Assembly: GCA_002840355.1 (NCBI GenBank)
Contig: PHAL01000022.1
Span: 1 to 39,516 of the forward strand
DNA from: Elusimicrobia bacterium HGW-Elusimicrobia-3
Lineage (GTDB): Bacteria; Elusimicrobiota; Elusimicrobia; Elusimicrobiales; UBA9959
Reading direction: 5' to 3'
DNA: 39,516 nucleotides
Position 1 is the first letter of the stretch; each line of letters starts with the position of its first letter. The position numbers were made by a program, and so were the translations under genes. The notes beneath the pieces were generated by a model. The model worked only from the letters and a program-made list of their open reading frames with translations, made no database searches and was not told the origin of the DNA. Below are positions 39 through 12,228 of the stretch, piece by piece.

Positions 39-1091
39 CTACCACATAAAGTAAACTTCCTCTTTCTCCTCGGCCCGCTTTTTCTTCGGCGGCGCCTTGC
101 TGCCGCCCTGGCGCGCGGGAACGGCCCGCTTTACCGCCCGCTGCTGCGGCAGGCCCCTGAACGGCCTGCGCCGGGTCTCGGCCGGCCGTCGCGCCCCGAA
201 GCTCAGCGCCACGGTAACGCGGTGGGCGTCGCCCAGTTCGCCGTACGGTGCGAAGGCGTAATCCACGCGCAGGTCGCGGTTGGTAAGCCCTATGCCCGCC
301 GTGAAACCGGTGCCGGCGTAGCGGCTGCGGCCGGTCTTGTAGCCGCCCCTGAAATAAAAGTATTCCTGCGGCCCGGCCGTCAGGCGGGCTTCCGCCCCCA
401 GCGCGGCGGCGAGGTCCGAGCCGCCGGCCTTTACCGCCTCGGCCGCCGCCAGGAAATTGCCCGGCAAGGACCTGGAGACGCCCGCGCGCAGCACGAGCGG
501 CAGCGGGAAGCTGCGCGAGCCCAGTTTAAGGGCCGAGCCGAAATTGGCGGCGGAGACGCCCGCGCGCCAGTAGCCGAAAGTCTTGAGCAGGCCCGCGTCC
601 CCGGCCCAGGCGCTCGCGCTGAGGCCGTCGGCGCGCTGGGTGAGGAATTTCAGCGCCGCGCCGCCGTAGAACTCCCGTCCGAGCGCGGCCGCGGCGCCGG
701 CCGACACCGCGCCTTCCAGCGCGCTGAAAGAGCCGGTCCTGGCCCCGGCGGCGTCGTACTTGTCCATGCCGCCCGAGAGCAGCAGGTTAGCGCCGCCGAA
801 CAGCGTCAGCCCGGGCCCGAGCGGGTGCACGTAGGCCGCGGACTCGTTGCGCATCTCCTGCAGCCATTCATTATGTCCCACCAGCGCCTCCTTGCGCTCG
901 GCGAGCGCCGGGCCGGCCGGGTTGTAGAACACGCTCAGCGCGTCGTCCCCGGCGGCGCAATAGGCGCCGCCCATGGCCGCGCCGCGCGCCCCCGCGTCCA
1001 GCTTGAGAAAAGGCAGCGCGTCGCCCCCCGCCCCGCCCAGTGCCGGGGCGGCGGAGAATATTGCAAGTATGAGCGCCGCCGCTAGTTTCAT
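39..1091 (-). CDS. PorV/PorQ-type outer-membrane beta-barrel protein
   Basis: 350 residues. A signal peptide (residues 1 to about 20) is followed by the stretch GARGAAMGGAY and then DDALSVFYNPAGPA, the usual N-terminal signature of the PorV/PorQ (UPF0164-like) outer-membrane barrel family. Alternating hydrophobic/aromatic strands run to about residue 300 and end in VTVALSFGA. After the barrel there is an unusual basic, Arg/Lys/Pro-rich tail of about 50 residues that ends in EEVYFMW. The ATG start lies 3 bp after the stop of the M6 protease gene, so it is the last gene of a three-gene operon. PorV proteins of Bacteroidetes shuttle type IX secretion substrates at the outer membrane. Whether this homologue does so is an inference from its protease neighbour. 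It could also be a FadL-like transport barrel. Confidence 0.75.
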   Translation of the reverse strand: MKLAAALILAIFSAAPALGGAGGDALPFLKLDAGARGAAMGGAYCAAGDDALSVFYNPAGPALAERKEALVGHNEWLQEMRNESAAYVHPLGPGLTLFGGANLLLSGGMDKYDAAGARTGSFSALEGAVSAGAAAALGREFYGGAALKFLTQRADGLSASAWAGDAGLLKTFGYWRAGVSAANFGSALKLGSRSFPLPLVLRAGVSRSLPGNFLAAAEAVKAGGSDLAAALGAEARLTAGPQEYFYFRGGYKTGRSRYAGTGFTAGIGLTNRDLRVDYAFAPYGELGDAHRVTVALSFGARRPAETRRRPFRGLPQQRAVKRAVPARQGGSKAPPKKKRAEEKEEVYFMW

Positions 1092-1094
1092 AAA

Positions 1095-4000
1095 TTACCA
1101 GACCAGGAAGAACTTGCCGCTGCCTTTGCCCCTGTTGTCGGTCTTGACCACGTAGATATACAGCCCGCTGGCCGCCCTGCCGCCGTTCTTGTCGCGGCCG
1201 TTCCAGGAAATCGAGTTCAGGGCGCTGACGCCGTCGGAGCGCGTCAGTTCGCGCACCAGTTCCCCGGCCGAGTTAAAGATATAAGCCCGGGTCCCGGTTG
1301 CGTCCACCGGCACGCCGTCTATGGTCAGCCCGGAGGCGGAGCGCAGGTCGCAGGGGTTCGGATACGCCCGCAGGTCGCCGATGCCCGGCCCCGCGTCGCC
1401 CGCGGCCCTGACGGAATAGACCGAGAAGTGAGAGACCTGGGCGGAGAGGGTATTGGCCCCGGGGTCTCGCGTCACGCCGGGCACCGGGGTCCAGCGGCCG
1501 GCGGCCGGGTCCAGGTAATAGATCCAGGCCTTGGACTCTTCGATCAGGTCCATGTCTATGCGCCCGTCGTCGTCGGCGTCGGGATAGGCCAGGGTGATAG
1601 TGACCGGCGCCGCGAAAGCGGTAACGGGCGTTCCGGCGGTATCGCGGGCGGAAAAGTCGCGCGCCAGGTCATAGCCGTAGATCTTGAAGGAATCGGGCGA
1701 AGCCGCGTCGGGCCCGGCCAGCGCCGCCGCCGGCGCCGTCGAGACCGACAGAAGTATCGTCCCCGTGTAGGCCCCGGCCGGCAGCGTTATGCCGGCGCCG
1801 TCGCTGTTGTACACCGAACCGCCCGAGGCCCCGGCCAGGGCGTAGTTTATCGTGAAAGTGCCGCCTGAGGTAATGGAAGTCCCGGTATTTCCCGCGGCGT
1901 CGGCGGCGGAGAACTGGAAGGAAGCCGTGCCGGTGGAGAGGTAAGACTCTATATAGCCGGAGGCTGTCCACGTCGAACCCGTCAGGAACGTCAGCGCCAG
2001 CGGCACCGCGCGGCCGTTGGAAGTGACGAAACGCAGCTGCGGGGCGGCGGGCAGCGGGTTGGCCTCGGTCACGACCAGCCGGGCGGTGAACAGGCCGGTC
2101 CGGCCCGGCAGCGCAGTGAGTACCTCCACCTTGGCGACCGGGCTGACCGTGTCAGTCTTCTGACCGTCGGAGGCGGTAGGCGTCGAATAGTATCCGCCGG
2201 TATTGTGCGCCCGCACGGAGAAATAATAGGTGGTGGCCTGCGCCAGGCCGAGGCCCGTGCGCGTCACGTAGGCATTCAGCCCGGTGCTGGTCCAGCCGGC
2301 GGTCTGTGTGCCGCCCGGCGTGGTGCCGATGGCGTACTCGTAGCGGTCTATATTCTCGGAGGGCGACTGCGCCCAGTAGGCCGAGAGCGTGGTCAGCGAG
2401 CGCACATAATCTATATCCCCCTCCGTGCCGTCGTGGACGTAGGCCACGTCGGCGGGCGACTGCGTGTCCACCGTCTGGCCGTTGGACCGGGTCTCAGCGG
2501 AATAGACGCCCACGCCGCTGATGGCCTTTACGCTGAAATAGTAGGTCTGCCCCGGCGTCAGCGTGAGGCCGGAGCGGGTAACGGAGAGGGCTAGGCCGTT
2601 GGAGGTCCAGCCCGCCACGTTGGTGCCGCCCGGCGCGGTGCCGATGGCGTAATAGTAGCCGGCCAGGCCGGTCTCGGGGTCCCCGGCCGAAGCGGGCCAG
2701 TTGGCCGAGAGCTGGGTCAGCGAGCCGGTGGTGGAGATATCGCTGCCGACGGTCAGGCCGTCGTAGACGGCGGCCACGGCCGCCGGCGGCGTGACGTCTG
2801 TGGTGCCCAGGTAGAAGGTCATTGTCGCCCCGGTGGCGGACACCGCGCTGATGGGCAGTTTCAGGTTCTGGCCCGCGTAGCTTTTGCTGTTGGGGGAAGT
2901 AGAATCCGAAAAGGAGGTGTTGTTGCCGGAGCGGTAGTAGTCGGCGTCATCGCCGGTGGTCCAGCTGTTGTACGGGCCCGTCAGGTGCTGCGTGCCGCTG
3001 GCCTCCTCCAGGTCCACCTTGTAACGGGCGGGGTTGTCGTTGCCGGCCATGGTCTCGTCGACATGCCAGACCAGCAGGCCGCGGGAGGAGCCGGGCAGGT
3101 AGGCGTCGAAGCCGTAGCCCTGCCGGTTCTCTATCAGGAAATATTCCGAGGCCGGGAAAGCGGAGTCGCGCAGCTGGTAGAGCGCGGCGGGGTCCGCGGC
3201 TATGCGGCCCAGCGACTTGGTGCCTATGGTAGTTAGCTGCGTGGGCACGGCCCAGCCCAGGGCCTTCTTGGGCCAGGCGCTCAGGTGGGCCGGCGAGGCG
3301 CCGTCCTCGTCCGCGCCGTTCCAGGAACCGCCGCTCATCAGGCAGAAGCTGCCGATACCGTTGCTCTCGTAGGTGGTGTCGTAAAGGTCGGGCAGGCCCA
3401 GGAAATGGCCGGTCTCGTGGCAGATGACGCCGATGCGCGAGATGCCCTGGGACGAGGGCGTGTCGCTCCAGCCGCGGATCTCCGCCTCCGTATGATAGGC
3501 CTCCATCCTTACGCCGTCGTAGGTGAGCGGGGTTATCAGTTCCCACTGGTGGGACCAGATGGCGTCGGTCGGGTTGTCGGTATACTCCTCGGCGAAACCG
3601 GAGTGGATGACGGTCAGGCCGTCCACCTCGCCGTCGCCGTTGCCGTCGGCCTGGCTGAAATCGAAGCCCGAAGCCTCCAGCGCGTTGATGGCGTCGCGCA
3701 CCATCTCGCGCGGCCGCACGTCGTAGCCGTCCACGTCGTTGGCGCCGTAATAAGCCTGGTTCTGCGGCAGCGTTACCCAGGCCGTCACCACGGACTGCAC
3801 CGTTAGTTCGCCGTAGGAAGTCTCCAGGAAATAGTCCTTCACCGAGCCGACCGCGCCGTCGAGATTGTAGCCGACCTGGTTGAAGAGATTATTGAAAGAG
3901 GTCTGGCTGTGCGTGGCGGCCTGGTCCGAGAACCTGGCCAGTATCACCAGGTTCTTCATCGTCCCGGCAAGTATGGGCGCGCGGGCCGGCTGGGCAGCGG

Positions 4001-4463
4001 AGGGCGAAACGGCGGAGACAGTCCCCCCTGGCGCCGCCGAAACCCTGAAAGGCGAGGACGAAGCGCGCGCGCTCCTTGCGGCGGCGTCGCGCCGGCGCCG
4101 CTCGGCGCCCGCTTTGGCGCGCCTGGCGTCCCGCAGGCCCTTCTGAAAGCCCGCTTTGCCCGGCTCTACCGTCCCTACGCGGTGGGCGCCCGGCCGCAGC
4201 GAACCGTCGGCGGCCTTCTCCGCGTAAAACCAGGTCCTGGCGGCAGGGTCCTTGATTACGGTATAGCCGTCCCGGTCCTCGTGCCAGTGATGATACTCGT
4301 CGCCCCGCAGCCGCACCGTAACCGTGGAGCCGTCGGCCTGAGCCACCGCGGCGGCGCGCGGGTTGGCCGGCACGGCGCGCGCCGGCCCGGCCAGGCAGGC
4401 CAGCAGCAATGCGGCAGCCAGGGCAGAGAGCGGAGCAGCGGTGAGGGCCTTAACGTGGGGCAT
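1095..4463 (-). CDS. Secreted M6-family metalloprotease with Fn3 repeats and FlgD-like C-terminal domain
   Basis: 1122 residues. Signal peptide about 1-30, then a propeptide-like region. The M6 (immune inhibitor A-like) catalytic domain spans about 165-560 and carries the zinc motif HETGH at 349-353, followed by FLGLPDLYD. A D-N-G-D-G-E-V-D loop before the active site looks like a calcium site. Two tandem fibronectin III-like repeats of about 95 residues follow (about 620-820; both contain YAIGT.PGGT and YYFSV). Then come an Ig-like region, a module with a second Asp-rich loop (DADDDGRID), and a C-terminal FlgD/type-IX-like sorting domain from about 1035. That domain begins AYPNPCD, contains SGLYIYVV and ends KFFLVW. 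The start is 1 bp downstream of the preceding gene's stop and 3 bp separate its stop from the barrel gene, so translation is probably coupled. Likely an extracellular or surface-attached protease; substrate unknown. Confidence 0.88.
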   Translation of the reverse strand: MPHVKALTAAPLSALAAALLLACLAGPARAVPANPRAAAVAQADGSTVTVRLRGDEYHHWHEDRDGYTVIKDPAARTWFYAEKAADGSLRPGAHRVGTVEPGKAGFQKGLRDARRAKAGAERRRRDAAARSARASSSPFRVSAAPGGTVSAVSPSAAQPARAPILAGTMKNLVILARFSDQAATHSQTSFNNLFNQVGYNLDGAVGSVKDYFLETSYGELTVQSVVTAWVTLPQNQAYYGANDVDGYDVRPREMVRDAINALEASGFDFSQADGNGDGEVDGLTVIHSGFAEEYTDNPTDAIWSHQWELITPLTYDGVRMEAYHTEAEIRGWSDTPSSQGISRIGVICHETGHFLGLPDLYDTTYESNGIGSFCLMSGGSWNGADEDGASPAHLSAWPKKALGWAVPTQLTTIGTKSLGRIAADPAALYQLRDSAFPASEYFLIENRQGYGFDAYLPGSSRGLLVWHVDETMAGNDNPARYKVDLEEASGTQHLTGPYNSWTTGDDADYYRSGNNTSFSDSTSPNSKSYAGQNLKLPISAVSATGATMTFYLGTTDVTPPAAVAAVYDGLTVGSDISTTGSLTQLSANWPASAGDPETGLAGYYYAIGTAPGGTNVAGWTSNGLALSVTRSGLTLTPGQTYYFSVKAISGVGVYSAETRSNGQTVDTQSPADVAYVHDGTEGDIDYVRSLTTLSAYWAQSPSENIDRYEYAIGTTPGGTQTAGWTSTGLNAYVTRTGLGLAQATTYYFSVRAHNTGGYYSTPTASDGQKTDTVSPVAKVEVLTALPGRTGLFTARLVVTEANPLPAAPQLRFVTSNGRAVPLALTFLTGSTWTASGYIESYLSTGTASFQFSAADAAGNTGTSITSGGTFTINYALAGASGGSVYNSDGAGITLPAGAYTGTILLSVSTAPAAALAGPDAASPDSFKIYGYDLARDFSARDTAGTPVTAFAAPVTITLAYPDADDDGRIDMDLIEESKAWIYYLDPAAGRWTPVPGVTRDPGANTLSAQVSHFSVYSVRAAGDAGPGIGDLRAYPNPCDLRSASGLTIDGVPVDATGTRAYIFNSAGELVRELTRSDGVSALNSISWNGRDKNGGRAASGLYIYVVKTDNRGKGSGKFFLVW

Positions 4464-4464
4464 A

Positions 4465-5451
4465 TCAGCGTGCGCGTCCTTTCTTCTTCAGGGCGCCTTT
4501 CGCGGCGCCAGGCACTATCTCTATGGGGGCGGACCATTCGCCGGCCCGGCGGCCGTCGGAACCCATGAAGCGCAGGTACTGGCCGGGGGCGACGGTGACC
4601 GGCAGGCCGGAGAGCCTGTAGGTGCAGGTATCGGTGAAAACGTCGGCCAGCGGCGCGTCGAAATCGGCGGTATTGGCCAGCTGCAGGCGGAAGTGCCTGT
4701 CGCCGGGGGCGGGCTGCCAGGTCACGGCTCCCCTGTTCAGCGGCGCCTTGGCCTGGGCCGGCGCGGCCGGCGAACCCGGCTTCGCGGCCCCGGCCCGGTT
4801 GGAGACCGCGAAATTGTAAACGGAGGAATAGGGCGTTTGCGAATACTCGCCCGTATTGAGCCGCACCACCGGCGCGACGCGCCAGTAGTAGATCCCGTCC
4901 TCCAGCAGCGAGGGATAGAGCAGGTACTGGTTGTCGGCTATGCCGGTCTCGAGATAGATCTCGGAGAAATCCTCACCGCGGCTGATCTGCAGGCGATAGG
5001 AGGCGGCTTTCATGACGTCGTTCCAGGCCAGGCGCAGGCCGCCGCGGCGGCCGGCCTTCTGCACCCGGCTGCTGACCACCAGCGGGGCCACGGGCGGGTC
5101 CTCCACGAAGCGTTTGTTCCAGGCGTTCACGGCGAACACGGCGTTCTCGCCGTAGCGGGCGAACGAGGCCCAGTCGTCCACCTTCTCCCGGTATACCTTG
5201 GCGCCGTATTTTTCCTCCAGTTCCCGGTCCAGGTCCTGCGGTATATGGCCCACGAAAACGCTGGGCGGGTGGGATTCCAGCAGCTTGGCGCCTTTCTTTT
5301 CCAGGTAATCCTGGAACTTGCGGTCGAAGGCCGTTTCGGAAGGCACTACCAGCAGCGCGTTGGCCGGCGCTTCGGCGGCCGGGGAGGGCGAGCTGAGAAA
5401 GCACAAGGCCGCCAGCGCGGCGGCGAACAGGAGCGGTATCCCTTTTTTCAT
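4465..5451 (-). CDS. Secreted protein with fibronectin type III-like domains
   Basis: 328 residues, first gene of the exported-protein operon. Signal peptide about 1-25 (KKG start, hydrophobic core, PSPAAEA). Residues about 30-120 form a domain I do not recognise (LLVVPSETAFDRKFQDYLEK then VGHIPQDLDRELEEKYG). Its short alpha/beta look recalls protease propeptide/inhibitor folds, but this is only an impression. Residues about 125-225 look like an Fn3 domain (LRLAWNDVMKAASYRLQIS ... YYWRVAPV), and a second such domain (TWQPAPGDRHFRLQLA) reaches about residue 315. The end is basic (KGALKKKGRAR). The ATG has an AGGTGA ribosome-binding site 5 bp upstream. Next to the M6 protease it could be an accessory, anchor or inhibitor of that enzyme; there is no direct evidence. 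Confidence 0.72.
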   Translation of the reverse strand: MKKGIPLLFAAALAALCFLSSPSPAAEAPANALLVVPSETAFDRKFQDYLEKKGAKLLESHPPSVFVGHIPQDLDRELEEKYGAKVYREKVDDWASFARYGENAVFAVNAWNKRFVEDPPVAPLVVSSRVQKAGRRGGLRLAWNDVMKAASYRLQISRGEDFSEIYLETGIADNQYLLYPSLLEDGIYYWRVAPVVRLNTGEYSQTPYSSVYNFAVSNRAGAAKPGSPAAPAQAKAPLNRGAVTWQPAPGDRHFRLQLANTADFDAPLADVFTDTCTYRLSGLPVTVAPGQYLRFMGSDGRRAGEWSAPIEIVPGAAKGALKKKGRAR

Positions 5452-5521: not shown

Positions 5522-5854
5522 ATGGAAGAACGCCGTCTTGCGGTCAGCGAAGAGTGCGTGGAGCCGGAGCTGGTAAGCCCCGGCGGCCAGGGCCAGCGCA
5601 CCTCCGGCCCGCGGCCGGGGCCCGTCCCCCCGCCGCAACCGCCAGGCCTGCTGACGCGGCTGAAGGCCCTGCTAGCGGCCGCTCTGGCCCTGCTGGGTTT
5701 CGCCCTGCTGGTCTCCGGCGCGCTGCTGACCTCCACCGTCATCGGCGCCATCATCGGCATACCGCTCATCCTGCTGGGCGCGCTGGTCTTCTACCTGCTC
5801 TTCAAGTTCCTCTCCCTGGGCGCCGTCCCCCCCGTCACCTTCCGCCGTTTCTAA
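5522..5854 (+). CDS. Small membrane protein with two transmembrane helices
   Basis: 110 residues, no family recognised. The first 40 residues are hydrophilic and Pro/Gly-rich (GPRPGPVPPPQPPG). Two hydrophobic helices follow (about 45-67 and 70-95), separated by a short turn, and a short tail ends in TFRRF. Codon use (GC-rich third positions, many CTG and GCC) matches the neighbouring real genes, which supports it being coding. It stands alone between a divergent operon and a convergent one. No ribosome-binding site precedes the ATG. The start is supported instead by the -10 box six bases upstream. Confidence 0.65.
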   Translation: MEERRLAVSEECVEPELVSPGGQGQRTSGPRPGPVPPPQPPGLLTRLKALLAAALALLGFALLVSGALLTSTVIGAIIGIPLILLGALVFYLLFKFLSLGAVPPVTFRRF

Positions 5855-6297: not shown

Positions 6298-9200
6298 TTA
6301 CTTCACTTTAAAAGTGAAGCCGGAGGAGTGGGCGGCGAATTCGGGGGCGTACATGGACTGTATCACCGCCGCGCCGGCCTTGAACGTGCCCGGCGTGGTC
6401 GGGCGCAGCCGGTACTTGAGCACGTACTCGCCGTGCGGCAGCCACTCCACGAAGAAGTTCGTCAGCGAGTCGCGCGGCTCCTCGTAGCGGGCCAGCCGGT
6501 CCCACTGCCAGCCGCTGGTCAGCGTCTCCGCCTCGAAGCCGGCGGCCTTGGGGTCCTTGATGTGCACGTACTCGAACTGACCTCGCGTCCTTACGGTCAG
6601 GTGCACCTCCACCTGGTCGCCCACGGCCACGGAATCCCCGTCGGCCAGCGGGGTCAGCGTGTAGGCGTCCCCCTCCTTGGCGCGCAGGAAATACTTGCGC
6701 GAGACGTTCATCATCCCGGCCGGCGACTCTACGGCGGTCTTGTCGGTAGTGTAGATGCCGGTGAAGGCGGCGAAGGCCAGGCCGGGGCCGCGCTTGCGCA
6801 CCTCCGGGGCCAGGTCTTTTTTTCCGATCTCGGCGCCGTACTTGGACCAGCGCAGCGGCCGGGCGGCCCAGTCGAAGGGCTGCAGCTCTACTTTCTCCGT
6901 CGTGGCGCCCCATTTCAGCGAGAAGGTCTCGCCCTTGTCCAGCGCGCCCCGGGCCTTCATCACGTCGAGCAGCGAGTAGATGGCCGCCGCCGAAGCCCTG
7001 GTGGACTTCCATTCGTTGCCCTTGCGGTTGAAGAGCAGCCAGCGCGTCAGGCCCGGGATCTTCGGGTCCGCCGGCCGCAGCGCCAGCAGCGTCCGCAGCA
7101 GGAAGGCGTGTTTCTCCACGCTGTCGTTGTACCACAACCACGAGATCTTCTCCGGAGTCCAGTAGGTGCCGGAGATATCGTCGGTGCGGGCCCCGTCCAT
7201 GGCGCGGGCCAGGTAGCCGTCGGCCTTGGCCCGCTCGCCCAGCCGGTGGTAGACGTAGGCCGCGTAGGCCTTGCCGAAAGCGGTCATCGCGTTGGCGTGC
7301 TTGTCGGAGAAATCCGCCCAGGCCTTGGCGTACTCGCGCGCGGCGGCGCTCTCCGGCCAGGCGGCCGGGAACGAGGTAACGACGTAGGCCGCGTAGAGCA
7401 CCAGCGAGGTCTCGGCGGGATCGGCCTTCAGATGCGACGGGATCTCGCCCAGCGCGTAGGCCAGCGCCCGGCGGGCCATGTCCTCGGGTATCTGCACCCC
7501 GTAGCGCGAGGCCTCGGCCAGCCCCTCCAGCACATAGAGCGTCATGTGCAGGTTCGGCCTGCCGCCGGGGAACCAGGGGAAGGAGCCGTCCGCGCCCTGG
7601 TAGGACTTCAGCTTGCCCAGCGCGTCGTCCTTGCCGGCCGCCACCACCTTCGGGTCCAGCATGTCGGTGACCGGCCAGCCGGCCTGCCGCCCGCGGGACG
7701 CGGACTCCCACGGCGTCTCCATCAGGCTCATCAGGCGCACCGGGTTGTCCCTCTCCCATTCGGGGGTCAGGGTCTTGCGCTTGGGGACCTTCGCCACGGC
7801 GGCGCTGAGCGCCGGATACTTCTTATAGAAGCCGTTGGTGATGGCCAGCGGCACGTAGCGGTTGAGCAGCTGCTCCGTGCATTCGTAAGGATAATTCACG
7901 AGGAAAGGCAGGCTGTTGAGCACGGTCAGGATCAGCTGCGGCTGTATCTCCAGGTGCAGCGATTCAACCTCGCGCGTCGGGTCGGCCGCCTCCAGCTCCG
8001 GCAGCCGGAAGGTCTTGGCGGCGTTGCCGTCGAGGGCGGCCACGCCGGAGGCTATCAGCCGCTCGCGCGACGGCAGCACCGGCAGTTCGTTCTCCTGCGC
8101 GTCGGACAGCTGCCCGGCGCGGGCTATCACGCGCGCCTGGTAGGCCGCCGGAGCGCGCGGCGCCGTGATCTCCCAGTACACCGGCACGGTGCCCTTGGGT
8201 TTAACGGTGAAGGGCCTCGAGAGCTCACTCACGCCGAAGTCGCCGTGGGCCTCGGCCCCGTCGCGCGTCACCGAGAGGGAGACGGTGCCCGACAGCTCGC
8301 CGCCGGTGTCGTTGGTGACCAGGGCGGTCAGGCGCGACCGGTCCCCCTCGCGGAAGAAGCGGGGGATGTCGAGCCGCGCCATCAGGTCTTTTTTCGTGAC
8401 GGTCTCGGCGGCGAAAGAGCCCCGCCGCGCGTCGCGCGTGAGCAGGTACGAGGAGATCTTCCAGGAGGTCAGCCGCTCCGGAATACGGAACGAGAAAGCC
8501 GCCTCCCCGCGCAGCACCTTCAGCTGCGGGTTATAATAGGCCGTTTCGGAGAAATCCTTGCGCACCGCCACCGGGGCGGCCTGAGCTTCGGCTGGCGCCG
8601 CGGCCGGGGCCCGCGCGGCGGAGAGCTTGGCCTCAGGCAGGCCCATGCTCGGCCTCGTACCCTCGGTCAGGTCCGCGAAGTCGGCTTCAGCCAGGGCCCC
8701 GTCCGGGGCGGCTTCGAAGGCCAGCCCCTTGGAAAAAGCGGCCTTGCCGCCGTAGGAGGTGTCACGGTAGGACAGGCGCGTGGAGGCTATGCGCAGCGAA
8801 GCCAGGCGTTCCTCGGCCGTGTACTGCCGGAAGGCCTGCAGCATTTTCTGCATCAGGCCGGTACGTACCGGCAGGCTGACGGCCCGCGGGGTGAACAGCG
8901 AGCCCATGGCCTCGCCCGAAGAGTAGCGGCGCGGATAGAGCGAATCCGCCCAGAAAGCGGCGTCCCCGGCGTAGTATTCCAGCGAGCGGTCGAAGACCTT
9001 TACCAGCGCCTCGCCGGCCACCGGCCGGCCGGCCGCGTCCCTGGCCCTTACTTTCCATGAGGCCCGCTGGCCGGGGGCGAGGGCCTTGTCGTAATCCAAT
9101 TGCAGGCTGATATTCTTGTTCGCCGACGGCACGTCGGCGTCGGCCATGGCCGAATATACCTTGAAGCCGCCGGCCCCCAGCCAGCGCAGGCCGAAGCCGC

Positions 9201-12200
9201 CGCGATGCTCGGGCCCGACCTTCAGCGTATGGACAGAAAGTCCGCCGCCCGGCGCGACGCTCCGCGCCAGCACGAAATTGCCGGCCAGCACTTCGGTGAA
9301 CCTGGCTCCCTTCATGGCCGAAGCGCCCACCAGCACGCGGGCGGTCTCGCCGGGCTGGTAGGAGCCGCGCTCGAACAGCGCCACCGCCGGCAGGCGCAGC
9401 GCGGCGTTGCGGCGCGAGTCGGCCGCGGCTGAAACCAGGATCACCTGCGACTCGCTCTCGCCCCCCCAGGGGTCCCGGGCCTTCAGGCGCAGCCTGTAGA
9501 CGCCGGGCGCGAGGCTCTTGAACGTGATAACGGAGGGGCGGTCCTTGGCGAAGGATACCTTGCCCTTGCCCGCCTGCTCGCCGTCGGGCACTTTGGAGAA
9601 GGCCTGCTCCAGCGACGGGTTGCGCCCGAAATGCCCCCAGTCGCGGGCGCCGCCCGCGTCCTCGGGGGCGCCGTCGAGCCGGTACAGCGTGTACTGCGCC
9701 TCGCCGGCCTGCTGCTCGTCGTTAAGGTCCCTCAGCCGCGCGTCGATGGCCGCCGTGCCTTCGGGCGTGAAGAAGCCGGCCTGCGGCCTGACGTCGAAGA
9801 GCCAGGCCACGGAGCCGGCCCGGTAGTCCCGGGAATCGGTTATGGTGCGGCCGCCGGCGTCCAGCGCCTCGGCCCCCACATGGTAGGAGGAGGGATAGCC
9901 CGCGAAGGCCTCGCTCTCGGGCTCCGGCGTGAAAGTGAAACTGAACTTGCCGTCGTCGCCGGTCACGGTTTCGCCGGCGGCTACCGGGACTCCGGCGCCG
10001 CCTCCGTAGAACCAGCCCCAGTACCAGCAGTAGCGCGGCAGGTAACGCGAGCGGATCACGGTGTACTTCACCCTGGCGCCGGGCACCGGGGAGCCGAAGT
10101 AGTACTTCGCCTCGCCGGAGACCCTGGCCTTCTCGCCGTAGCGCAGCGGCTTGTCCGCGGCCTCCAGTTTCACCTCGAACTCGGGCCGCTTGTACTCCTC
10201 TACCCCGAACCGGGCCGTGCCGCTGAAATTATAGCCGTACTCCCGCACTCCCGCCGAGAGCGAATACTGGCCCAGCATGCGGCCCTCCGGCAGTTTGAAC
10301 GAGCCGGCCGCGCTGCCGAGGCCGGTGAAGGGCACGGTGGCGGTATAGGCCGTCTGCCAGTTGGCGTCGCGGGCCGTCAGGGTGACGGCGGCCTTGCCGT
10401 CGTAGACCCTGTAGCCGCCCGGCTGGCGCAGCAGGGCGGTCACCTTGAACTTCACCTCCTGTCCGGGCCGGTATACCGGCCTGTCGGTCTCGACGAAGAC
10501 GGATACCGGCTGCGGCACGTGCAGCCCGGCCGAAGCCTGCGAGTTCCAGTAGGCGTAAGCCCCGCCGTGCCGCAGCAGCGGGTCCAGCGAGAAATATTCG
10601 TTGGCCGGGTAGGTCACCGCAAATTCATGGCGCAGTATGGCCGCCCCGTCGGGGCCGGCGGTCAGCGGGACCCGTTCCCAGGCCCTGGCGCGGGACTTAT
10701 GCACGAAGGCCTCGGTCTGCGCGCCGGCCAGCGGCGCGCCGGTCAGCGCGTTCACGGCATAGAGCCGGAACACTTCGGCGGAGGCCGGCCGGGAGGGAGC
10801 GGCCGGGTCGTAGAGGAAGGCCTCGGGATCGGCCCCCAGCCCGGAGGTGCCGAGCAGGAAGATATCAGTAATGTTGACCGTGACCGCCCGCATCAGCGAG
10901 GCCCCCTCCTCGAAACCGGCGTCGCCGGAGGCCACCACCACGTAAAGCCCTTTCTTGAAAGGAGGGTTGGCGATCGCGACCGAGGCCTCCCGGTAAGGGG
11001 CCTCGTATTTTAGCGTCTGCCGCCATTCATGGGACGCCCGGCGGCCCAGGAATTCCTTCACCGTCTCCTGGCGCAGATATTTGACGTGGTCCCAGCCCTG
11101 CTGCGAGCGGCCGAGGGAGGCCTGCAGTTCCTCCGGCGTGGTTTTGTACGCCCTGAAGTGCAGCTCGGGCAGGTTGCGCGCGGACACTTTAAGTATGTCC
11201 TTGCCGGGAGGCGGCGCGAAGGAGGTGGACAGTTCCAGCCGCGGCAGCTCTATGCCGGCCCGCAGCCGCGCGCAATGCGAGGCGGGCCTGGAGCGCGGGG
11301 CCTCGTCCTCCGCCTTGCGGCAGAGTTCCACGGCGGAGGCGAACTCCCCCGCCTCGTTCTCGAAAGCGGCGGCGCGGTAGTAAGTCCAGCTCCGCCCCAG
11401 CCCCGTCTTAAAAGAGGCGGCCCAGTACTTGAGCGTCTTGAGCGCCCGCGGGCGCAGCGCGGCGCGGTCGTAGGCCGCCACGCGCCCGGCCTGCTCGAAC
11501 GGCAGCATCAGGCGCTGCAGGCGCCAGTATTCGCGCGCGAAACCTGCCGGGCCGCCGGCGGCGGCCTCGTAGAGCGCTGCGGCTTTGGCGGCGGCCGGCG
11601 CTCCGGCGGCGTAGTCCGCTTTGTAAGAGATCCCCGCGAAAGGTTCGGCCGCGGGCAGCCGGCCGGAGTCTTCCGACTCGCCGAGCAGCCAGCTGGTCCA
11701 GCGCAGCACCGCGAAATCCCATAAGGCAGGTGTATAAAGGAGCTCCGCGCCCTTTATGTCCACGAAGTAAGCCTCGTCGGCCAGCCCCGCCTTCGCCAGC
11801 GCCGCCCTCAGCGGCCAGAGCGAGTCGTAATCCCCCGCTATCAGACCGCGCCACTGCGCGGCGGTCAGCTTAGCAACGTCCTTCGTGCCCTTCTGCTCGT
11901 CGGCGGGCAGGGCGTAGCCGTACTGCCGCAGGTACTGGCGGCCGGTCTCGGCCCGCAGCAGCAGGAACCTGGCCCGCCACAGCGGGTCCGCCGGCAGCTT
12001 CATGTCCGCCAGGCGCTGGGCGGCCTCGGCGTAGCGCAGCAGCAGGGCCTCGCTCTCGGCGGCGCGGTACAGGGCCTTAAGGCCGGGTTCGCCCGGAGTT
12101 TTGGCGGCGGCGGCGTAGCCGTCCAGCGCGGCCTGGTATTCGCCCTTGGCGAAGGCCTGGTCGGCGGCGTCGTTGCTCCCGCCGTAGGCCAGGCAGGGCA

Positions 12201-12228
12201 GCAGCAGTATCGCGATAAGTGTCTTCAT
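6298..12228 (-). CDS. Alpha-2-macroglobulin family protein with intact thioester
   Basis: 1976 residues. The signal peptide (KTLIAILLLPCLAYGG) has no good lipobox, so the product is probably periplasmic and soluble. A TPR-like helical region (about 20-330) is followed by macroglobulin domains. MG2 (VFVETDRPVYRPGQEVKFKV) starts near residue 575 and the next domain at EEYKRPEFEVKL. The central A2M domain contains SWKISSYLLTRDARRGSF. The thioester motif CTEQ lies in YPYECTEQLLNRYVP, with Cys1450 and Gln1453, and sits in an alpha-alpha toroid (NPVRLMSLMETPWE). The C-terminal receptor-like domain follows. Bacterial A2Ms are thought to trap proteases that reach the periplasm and often sit with the peptidoglycan synthase PBP1c. 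Here the upstream gene is murB instead, 28 bp away. The ATG is preceded by GGAGGGGGAAAC. Very long but normal for the family. Confidence 0.92.
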   Translation of the reverse strand: MKTLIAILLLPCLAYGGSNDAADQAFAKGEYQAALDGYAAAAKTPGEPGLKALYRAAESEALLLRYAEAAQRLADMKLPADPLWRARFLLLRAETGRQYLRQYGYALPADEQKGTKDVAKLTAAQWRGLIAGDYDSLWPLRAALAKAGLADEAYFVDIKGAELLYTPALWDFAVLRWTSWLLGESEDSGRLPAAEPFAGISYKADYAAGAPAAAKAAALYEAAAGGPAGFAREYWRLQRLMLPFEQAGRVAAYDRAALRPRALKTLKYWAASFKTGLGRSWTYYRAAAFENEAGEFASAVELCRKAEDEAPRSRPASHCARLRAGIELPRLELSTSFAPPPGKDILKVSARNLPELHFRAYKTTPEELQASLGRSQQGWDHVKYLRQETVKEFLGRRASHEWRQTLKYEAPYREASVAIANPPFKKGLYVVVASGDAGFEEGASLMRAVTVNITDIFLLGTSGLGADPEAFLYDPAAPSRPASAEVFRLYAVNALTGAPLAGAQTEAFVHKSRARAWERVPLTAGPDGAAILRHEFAVTYPANEYFSLDPLLRHGGAYAYWNSQASAGLHVPQPVSVFVETDRPVYRPGQEVKFKVTALLRQPGGYRVYDGKAAVTLTARDANWQTAYTATVPFTGLGSAAGSFKLPEGRMLGQYSLSAGVREYGYNFSGTARFGVEEYKRPEFEVKLEAADKPLRYGEKARVSGEAKYYFGSPVPGARVKYTVIRSRYLPRYCWYWGWFYGGGAGVPVAAGETVTGDDGKFSFTFTPEPESEAFAGYPSSYHVGAEALDAGGRTITDSRDYRAGSVAWLFDVRPQAGFFTPEGTAAIDARLRDLNDEQQAGEAQYTLYRLDGAPEDAGGARDWGHFGRNPSLEQAFSKVPDGEQAGKGKVSFAKDRPSVITFKSLAPGVYRLRLKARDPWGGESESQVILVSAAADSRRNAALRLPAVALFERGSYQPGETARVLVGASAMKGARFTEVLAGNFVLARSVAPGGGLSVHTLKVGPEHRGGFGLRWLGAGGFKVYSAMADADVPSANKNISLQLDYDKALAPGQRASWKVRARDAAGRPVAGEALVKVFDRSLEYYAGDAAFWADSLYPRRYSSGEAMGSLFTPRAVSLPVRTGLMQKMLQAFRQYTAEERLASLRIASTRLSYRDTSYGGKAAFSKGLAFEAAPDGALAEADFADLTEGTRPSMGLPEAKLSAARAPAAAPAEAQAAPVAVRKDFSETAYYNPQLKVLRGEAAFSFRIPERLTSWKISSYLLTRDARRGSFAAETVTKKDLMARLDIPRFFREGDRSRLTALVTNDTGGELSGTVSLSVTRDGAEAHGDFGVSELSRPFTVKPKGTVPVYWEITAPRAPAAYQARVIARAGQLSDAQENELPVLPSRERLIASGVAALDGNAAKTFRLPELEAADPTREVESLHLEIQPQLILTVLNSLPFLVNYPYECTEQLLNRYVPLAITNGFYKKYPALSAAVAKVPKRKTLTPEWERDNPVRLMSLMETPWESASRGRQAGWPVTDMLDPKVVAAGKDDALGKLKSYQGADGSFPWFPGGRPNLHMTLYVLEGLAEASRYGVQIPEDMARRALAYALGEIPSHLKADPAETSLVLYAAYVVTSFPAAWPESAAAREYAKAWADFSDKHANAMTAFGKAYAAYVYHRLGERAKADGYLARAMDGARTDDISGTYWTPEKISWLWYNDSVEKHAFLLRTLLALRPADPKIPGLTRWLLFNRKGNEWKSTRASAAAIYSLLDVMKARGALDKGETFSLKWGATTEKVELQPFDWAARPLRWSKYGAEIGKKDLAPEVRKRGPGLAFAAFTGIYTTDKTAVESPAGMMNVSRKYFLRAKEGDAYTLTPLADGDSVAVGDQVEVHLTVRTRGQFEYVHIKDPKAAGFEAETLTSGWQWDRLARYEEPRDSLTNFFVEWLPHGEYVLKYRLRPTTPGTFKAGAAVIQSMYAPEFAAHSSGFTFKVK
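6301..6319. repeat. 19-bp near-perfect palindrome at the end of the A2M gene
   Basis: CTTCACTTT-A-AAAGTGAAG, with 9-bp arms, overlaps the last codons of the A2M gene just before its stop. It is AT-rich compared with the surroundings. It may be chance from the lysine and valine codons, or part of a transcription end signal. There is no U-tract. Confidence 0.35.

What the first reader, a model, noticed from the sequence alone, without database searches (positions are those of the whole stretch)
39..5451. Protease with sorting-type C-terminal domain in an operon with a PorV-like barrel
The M6 protease ends with a FlgD-like/type-IX-like domain (AYPNPCD ... SGLYIYVV) and sits 3 bp from a PorV/PQ-family barrel gene. 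In Bacteroidetes PorV is the carrier that hands such C-terminal domains from the type IX translocon to the attachment complex. A dedicated carrier-cargo pair encoded in one operon would be a compact surface-display module, possibly with the Fn3 protein as third part.
Basis: partly seen in the sequence, partly recalled or inferred. Interest (0 to 1): 0.6.

Follow-up and report, generated by a model that had tools for sequence, protein, structure and literature searches.

The report
Surface protease with its own carrier
This bacterium from the little-known phylum Elusimicrobiota encodes a secreted protease directly beside a dedicated outer-membrane carrier; the same one-cargo-one-carrier layout recurs at least 18 times in its genome, together with a relative of the type IX secretion gate that surveys have reported only from Bacteroidota and close relatives.

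Summary
Confirmed and larger than reported. The M6 protease (1095-4463, minus) ends in a type-A-like sorting domain (CTD; TIGR04183 26.4 bits, cutoff 23) and lies 3 nt upstream of a PorV/PorQ-family barrel (39-1091; NF033709 130.7 bits, cutoff 90). The genome (Elusimicrobiota) encodes a SprA homologue: 17 of 17 relatives match TIGR04189, and the model's four best PDB matches are all the T9SS translocon SprA (E 1e-49 to 1e-40; next 3e-7). It occurs in 167 of 177 good genomes of the phylum. The pair is one of many: 18 of 24 assessable PorV-family genes have a CTD gene directly upstream, pair members' distances correlate, and the layout recurs across families. The window pair is present or absent as a unit in relatives, and three protease types occupy the cargo slot. 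The Fn3 protein persists without the pair in 5 of 20, so it is separable. No C25 sortase or GldM was found (weak negatives). All five FliG-like genes, four with MotA/MotB-like genes, sit beside PorV-family genes although no FlhA was found. Best reading: a T9SS-type system with one dedicated PorV-family carrier, probably also anchor, per cargo. Secretion itself is inferred, not shown.

The parts
39..1091 (-). PorV/PorQ-family outer-membrane barrel (350 aa); proposed dedicated carrier/anchor of the upstream protease; basic C-terminal tail after the barrel
   Evidence: NF033709 130.7 bits, cutoff 90; best PDB sequence match PorV 6h3i_F E 0.005; one of about 25 paralogues in the genome
1095..4463 (-). 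M6-family metalloprotease with Fn3-like middle and C-terminal sorting domain (1122 aa); proposed cargo
   Evidence: TIGR03296 221 bits, Pfam M6 E 7e-31; 3 nt upstream of the barrel gene
3063..3947 (-). M6 catalytic domain (residues 173-467), the part that is replaced by other protease types in relatives
1098..2537 (-). C-terminal 480 residues shared by all cargo types at this locus in relatives
1098..1364 (-). CTD sorting domain (AYPNPCD...ASGLYIYVV...GKFFLVW), residues 1034-1122
   Evidence: TIGR04183 26.4 bits on the last 130 aa, cutoff 23; alignment A1
4465..5451 (-). Secreted protein with an N-terminal beta-alpha-beta-beta-alpha-beta domain and two Fn3 domains; first gene of the operon, separable from the pair
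   Evidence: AF2 model pLDDT 78 and Fn3 matches; kept without the pair in 5 of 20 relatives
6298..12228 (-). Neighbouring bacterial alpha-2-macroglobulin (1976 aa), conserved neighbour, probably a separate transcription unit
   Evidence: MG2, A2M, bMG10; synteny

Best explanation
The operon is one copy of a repeated cargo-carrier module of a type IX-like secretion system in Elusimicrobiota. Proposed steps: (1) the protease is exported by Sec to the periplasm (signal peptide seen in the sequence; export inferred); (2) its C-terminal Ig-like CTD is recognised in the outer-membrane translocon formed by the SprA homologue (homologue shown; function inferred from F. johnsoniae SprA-PorV-CTD structures); (3) the PorV-family barrel made from the next gene docks at the lateral gate of SprA, takes up the CTD and leaves with it (inferred by homology); (4) because each cargo has its own barrel, made from one transcript, and because some paralogous barrels are fused to OmpA, LysM or TPR domains, the barrel most likely stays bound and acts as the surface anchor, as PorP/SprF barrels do for type B cargo in Bacteroidota (inferred). 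The result is display of interchangeable proteases on the cell surface.
For: SprA homologue of 1776 aa: TIGR04189 in three stretches E 8e-38; 17 of 17 relatives match that family and no other; AF2 model of residues 100-1290 (pLDDT 80) has T9SS SprA entries 8gl6, 8gl8, 6h3i, 6h3j as its four best PDB matches (E 9e-50 to 8e-41; fifth 3e-7). Present in 167 of 177 good genomes of the phylum, and 19 of 20 listed genomes without PorV-family genes also lack SprA. Barrel. CTD. Pairing: 18 of 24 assessable PorV-family genes have a CTD gene directly upstream, leave-one-out E 5e-10 to 7e-24, non-CTD ORFs at most 5 bits; distances in pairs correlate, Mantel r 0.40, p 0.0006. Other families: 20 of 29 and 15 of 16 PorV loci. 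Window pair present or absent together in 20 of 20 relatives. CTD-barrel correlation across orthologues beyond the SprA tree, partial r 0.47, p 0.0008. Barrels fused to OmpA, LysM, TPR. Dedicated PorP/SprF shuttles encoded directly downstream of type B cargo are experimentally established (PMC12618676, PMC9143113).
Against: No C25/PorU sortase in 59 genomes (no control genome rang, so weak) and no GldM in this genome (E 0.28). The barrel fails the PorV equivalog cutoff. Six of 24 PorV-family genes lack a directly upstream CTD gene and at least four CTD proteins have no barrel nearby, so pairing is not absolute. SprA scores below the curated cutoff (129 of 200 bits) and finds no PDB match by sequence alone. 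Correlated distances can reflect joint duplication rather than binding. No secretion data exist.
Confidence: 0.7

Rival explanations
1. The system is type IX-like, but PorV-family barrels are interchangeable: any barrel can carry any CTD, and adjacency only matches expression.
For: Bacteroidota PorV serves all type A CTDs (PMC12618676); some CTD proteins here lack a neighbouring barrel; crosstalk between related shuttles is known; three cargo types have used the same barrel lineage.
Against: About 25 divergent barrels rather than one; correlated divergence of CTD and barrel; joint gain or loss of cargo and barrel.
Confidence: 0.2
2. The barrel is a FadL/UPF0164-type transporter or structural porin, and the C-terminal domain is an ordinary FlgD-like Ig domain without a sorting role; the protease is released by another route.
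For: Some barrels have weak matches to FadL/Toluene_X, UPF0164 and TraF; the CTD also resembles FlgD_ig.
Against: SprA homologue, CTD above the T9SS type A cutoff, best barrel match T9SS PorV, and repeated CTD-barrel pairing across the phylum.
Confidence: 0.06
3. The three genes form a three-part module in which the Fn3 protein is an obligate chaperone, inhibitor or adaptor of the protease.
For: Gene order and 1-nt spacing; conserved next to all three cargo types.
Against: Fn3 is retained without cargo and barrel in 5 of 20 relatives, and the own genome has one clear copy of it (one further weak match, E 7e-4) against about 18 CTD-barrel pairs.
Confidence: 0.15

Closest known systems
Type IX secretion system, type A branch (SprA-PorV-PorU, Bacteroidota)
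   Same: SprA homologue, PorV-family barrel, Ig-like C-terminal domain at the type A cutoff, protease cargo
   Different: About 25 PorV-family barrels, most paired with a cargo gene, instead of one general PorV; no C25 sortase or GldM detected; phylum Elusimicrobiota
Type B CTD cargo with dedicated PorP/SprF shuttle (F. johnsoniae SprB-SprF, Fjoh_3952-3951)
   Same: Carrier gene directly downstream of its cargo, one carrier per cargo, barrel as presumed anchor
   Different: The window barrel belongs to the PorV/PorQ family and the CTD is type A-like; only one paralogue tested (C78) matches PorP_SprF (PF11751)
T9SS-dependent M6-like proteases (NF052323)
   Same: M6-type domain with a C-terminal sorting domain
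   Different: 88.6 bits against a cutoff of 600; different architecture, and here the protease type is exchanged between relatives

Membership tests
Type IX secretion system | SprA/Sov outer-membrane translocon | tested here: met
   TIGR04189 in 17 of 17 homologues (below the curated cutoff) and four best PDB fold matches all SprA
Type IX secretion system | C-terminal sorting domain on the cargo | tested here: met
   TIGR04183 26.4 bits on the last 130 aa, cutoff 23; 22.7 on the whole protein
Type IX secretion system | GldL/GldM (PorL/PorM) motor | tested here: inconclusive
   GldM_1st best E 0.28 in own genome; GldL not searched; divergent forms could be missed
Type IX secretion system | PorU C25 sortase | tested here: inconclusive
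   No PF01364 match in 59 genomes, but no control genome rang
Type IX secretion system | PorK/GldK, PorN/GldN ring and SprE | not tested
Type IX secretion system | SprA-dependent export of CTD proteins | not testable with these tools
   Needs an experiment
PorV/PorQ family (NF033709) | Score above the family cutoff | tested here: met
   130.7 bits against 90
PorV equivalog (NF033710) | Score above the equivalog cutoff | tested here: not met
   33 bits against 250
PorP/SprF dedicated shuttle | Gene directly downstream of its CTD cargo | tested here: met
   Window pair and 17 further pairs in the genome
PorP/SprF dedicated shuttle | Membership of PF11751 | tested here: not met
   Window barrel has no PF11751 match; paralogue C78 does, 29.6 bits against 22.3

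The most novel reading that the evidence does not exclude
Elusimicrobiota have a T9SS-type secretion and display system wired differently from Bacteroidota: a SprA translocon served by many dedicated PorV-family carriers that also anchor their cargo, without PorU sortase and GldLM, and with energy, or a gliding-type function, supplied by flagellar-like FliF-FliG plus MotA/MotB complexes encoded next to PorV/SprF-like barrels.
Probability: 0.25. Interest if true: 0.9.

Novelty: new variant of a known kind. Interest (0 to 1): 0.78.

Why it matters
Type IX secretion has been reported as restricted to Bacteroidetes (PMC4793230) or the Fibrobacteres-Bacteroidetes-Chlorobi group (PMC11205867, abstract). 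A SprA homologue in most Elusimicrobiota genomes, with many encoded cargo-carrier pairs, would move the system's origin or spread well beyond that group. It also offers a natural set of matched CTD-barrel pairs with which to read how a carrier recognises its cargo, an open question for both type A and type B signals. Three protease types exchanged in front of one barrel lineage suggest a naturally modular surface-display device.

Tried and rejected
Sequence-only search of PDB with the SprA-like protein and its profile gave nothing; structure prediction resolved it. Operon of three obligate parts: rejected because Fn3 persists alone. Simple swap of the catalytic domain alone: not supported as stated, because the cargo type is monophyletic on the shared C-terminal 480 aa (2 changes) but needs 5 changes on the barrel, Fn3 and SprA trees, so larger parts of the cargo gene were exchanged, or old paralogues were sorted; the 97-aa CTD alone gives 7 changes, but that tree is short and probably poorly resolved. 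A genuine flagellum as explanation of the FliG/MotAB genes: rejected, no FlhA found while flagellated controls rang. FliG near PorV in other genomes: 16 regions chosen by long PorV frames held none, so that linkage is shown only in this genome. My first ORF filter used GC3 and failed on low-GC loci; it was replaced by six-frame searches. A barrel-CTD complex was not modelled: only single-chain predictions are offered and no coordinates or PAE are returned. A Foldseek search against viral structures was started and not collected, as it was no longer needed.

Full report
What is in the window. The Fn3 gene ends 1 nt before the protease gene, and the protease gene ends 3 nt before the barrel gene; a simple consensus scan shows no promoter or terminator between them on their strand (weak evidence). 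The protease is an M6 enzyme. Its last 90 residues resemble FlgD_ig, CHU_C and TIGR04183; with the last 130 residues alone TIGR04183 (T9SS type A sorting domain) passes its cutoff, 26.4 against 23. The barrel passes the PorV/PorQ subfamily cutoff but not the PorV or PorQ equivalog cutoffs; F. johnsoniae PorV is its best match among solved structures. The window starts at a contig end, so anything after the barrel is unseen here.

Organism. Named records found with the SprA-like alignment are Elusimicrobiota; the closest has 95% SprA identity (Elusimicrobia bacterium GWB2_63_16).

Core translocon. The genome has one 1776-aa SprA-like gene (C31:45866-51193). It matches TIGR04189 in three collinear stretches, E 8e-38, 129 bits against a cutoff of 200. 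All 17 homologues tested match that family and no other of 18,950. Sequence searches of PDB found nothing. An AlphaFold2 model of residues 100-1290, built on 42 Elusimicrobiota sequences (pLDDT 80), has the four SprA entries 8gl6, 8gl8, 6h3i and 6h3j as its best PDB matches, E 9e-50 to 8e-41; the fifth match is at 3e-7. The gene is in 58 of 59 family genomes, 212 of 248 phylum genomes, and 167 of 177 good ones. It lies divergently from lptF/lptG-like genes in many relatives. PorV-family genes are in 224 of 248 genomes; of the 20 listed genomes without them, 19 also lack SprA, nearly all reduced genomes of one group, so genome reduction confounds this co-occurrence.

Other parts. No Peptidase_C25 (PorU-like) was found in 59 genomes, but no control genome rang, so absence is not shown. 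GldM was not found in the own genome (best E 0.28).

The pair is a repeated unit. The own genome has about 25 PorV-family genes. Of 24 with visible upstream DNA, 18 have directly upstream, on the same strand, a gene ending in a CTD. In leave-one-out tests each of the 18 scores E 5e-10 to 7e-24 with a profile of the other 17; non-CTD ORFs reach at most 5.3 bits. With about 26 CTD genes among roughly 2,700 genes (my estimate from genome size), about 0.2 such neighbours would be expected by chance. In loci from across the phylum (17 families), 20 of 29 PorV loci have a CTD gene within 700 bp upstream, and 15 of 16 further PorV regions have one next to the barrel; in 105 other loci (2.0 Mb) the CTD occurs in 12, all of which also hold a PorV-family gene. 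Pairwise distances of barrels and CTDs correlate over the 18 pairs (r 0.40, p 0.0006), as joint duplication or coevolution predicts.

The window locus in relatives. The Fn3 protein is found in 42 of 59 family genomes. In 20 loci read in full, 15 have both cargo and barrel and 5 have neither: the pair behaves as a unit and Fn3 is separable. The cargo slot holds three protease types: M6; a HExxH-type metalloprotease without a Pfam match (HETGHIFYALDEY); and papain-like C1 with a lectin-like domain. All share the C-terminal 480 residues. Cargo type needs 5 changes on the SprA, barrel and Fn3 trees, but only 2 on the tree of the shared 480 residues, so cargo genes were exchanged or sorted while the barrel stayed with the locus. 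CTD and barrel distances correlate beyond the SprA tree (partial r 0.47, p 0.0008).

How it most likely works. In F. johnsoniae the CTD binds inside the SprA pore to PorV loops (PMC10994853); one PorV serves all type A CTDs, while each type B cargo relies on a PorP/SprF shuttle, commonly encoded directly downstream and needed in stoichiometric amount (PMC12618676), and PorP-like barrels anchor type B cargo (PMC9143113). Here the barrel is of the PorV family and the CTD is type A-like, but the genetic layout is that of type B. Several paralogous barrels carry OmpA, LysM or TPR extensions, which suggests tethering to the cell wall rather than recycling. I therefore favour a dedicated carrier that stays as anchor. 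Shown: genes, homologies, pairing, conservation. Inferred: binding, transport, anchoring.

The Fn3 protein. The AF2 model (pLDDT 78) shows a small N-terminal alpha/beta domain and two Fn3 domains; PDB matches reflect the Fn3 part only. Its role is unresolved; adaptor or chaperone is possible.

A second lead. All five FliG_C genes of the genome lie in clusters with a PorV-family gene; four clusters hold MotA- and MotB-like genes, and several of the FliG proteins also carry a FliF C-terminal region. No FlhA was found, while flagellated controls rang. The barrel of one such cluster (C78) matches PorP_SprF above cutoff, and its CTD and that of C68:736-2892 lean to the type B model. A flagellar-type motor coupled to this system, or a gliding-type machine, is possible but untested; it was not seen beside 16 PorV genes of other genomes.

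Literature. Searches of the held library found no paper describing type IX secretion, SprA or PorV in Elusimicrobiota. A 2016 survey found T9SS only in Bacteroidetes (PMC4793230). Papers outside the library may exist.

Noticed in passing
G000 C83:18998-27706, C22:148986-156993, C63:35625-40499, C68:84415-91118, C78:32140-37361 (L083, L077, L073, L075, L148): FliG-like proteins, some fused to a FliF C-terminal region, in clusters with PorV/SprF-like barrels, four of them with MotA- and MotB-like genes; these are all five FliG_C genes of a genome in which no FlhA was found.
   Followed up: partly
L069:7992-9356, L151:2967-4409, L077:6987-8702, L083:8094-9707, L148:6986-8953, L150:17295-18965: PorV-family barrels with C-terminal OmpA, LysM or TPR domains, suggesting cell-wall tethering of the carrier.
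   Followed up: partly
L087-L091, L102, L105 (HExxH protease); L092, L094, L095, L101 (papain-like): At the window locus of relatives the M6 protease is replaced by an unassigned HExxH metalloprotease or a papain-like C1 protease, with the same C-terminal 480 residues and the same barrel.
   Followed up: yes
L150:2-16924 (G000 C76): Open frame of more than 5,600 aa ending in a CTD, followed by a 125-aa CTD protein and a barrel with TPR repeats: possibly a giant surface adhesin.
   Followed up: no
window 6298-12228: Bacterial alpha-2-macroglobulin with a CTEQ thioester-like motif, conserved next to the Fn3 gene in many relatives even where protease and barrel are missing.
   Followed up: no
window 5522-5854, plus strand: Small divergent membrane-protein ORF between the alpha-2-macroglobulin and Fn3 genes; similar ORFs sit at the same place in L096, L099, L100 and L104.
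   Followed up: no
L066:7529-15196 and the same place in L154, L156-L163: lptF/lptG-like permease genes lie divergently next to the SprA homologue in many genera; the reason is unknown.
   Followed up: no
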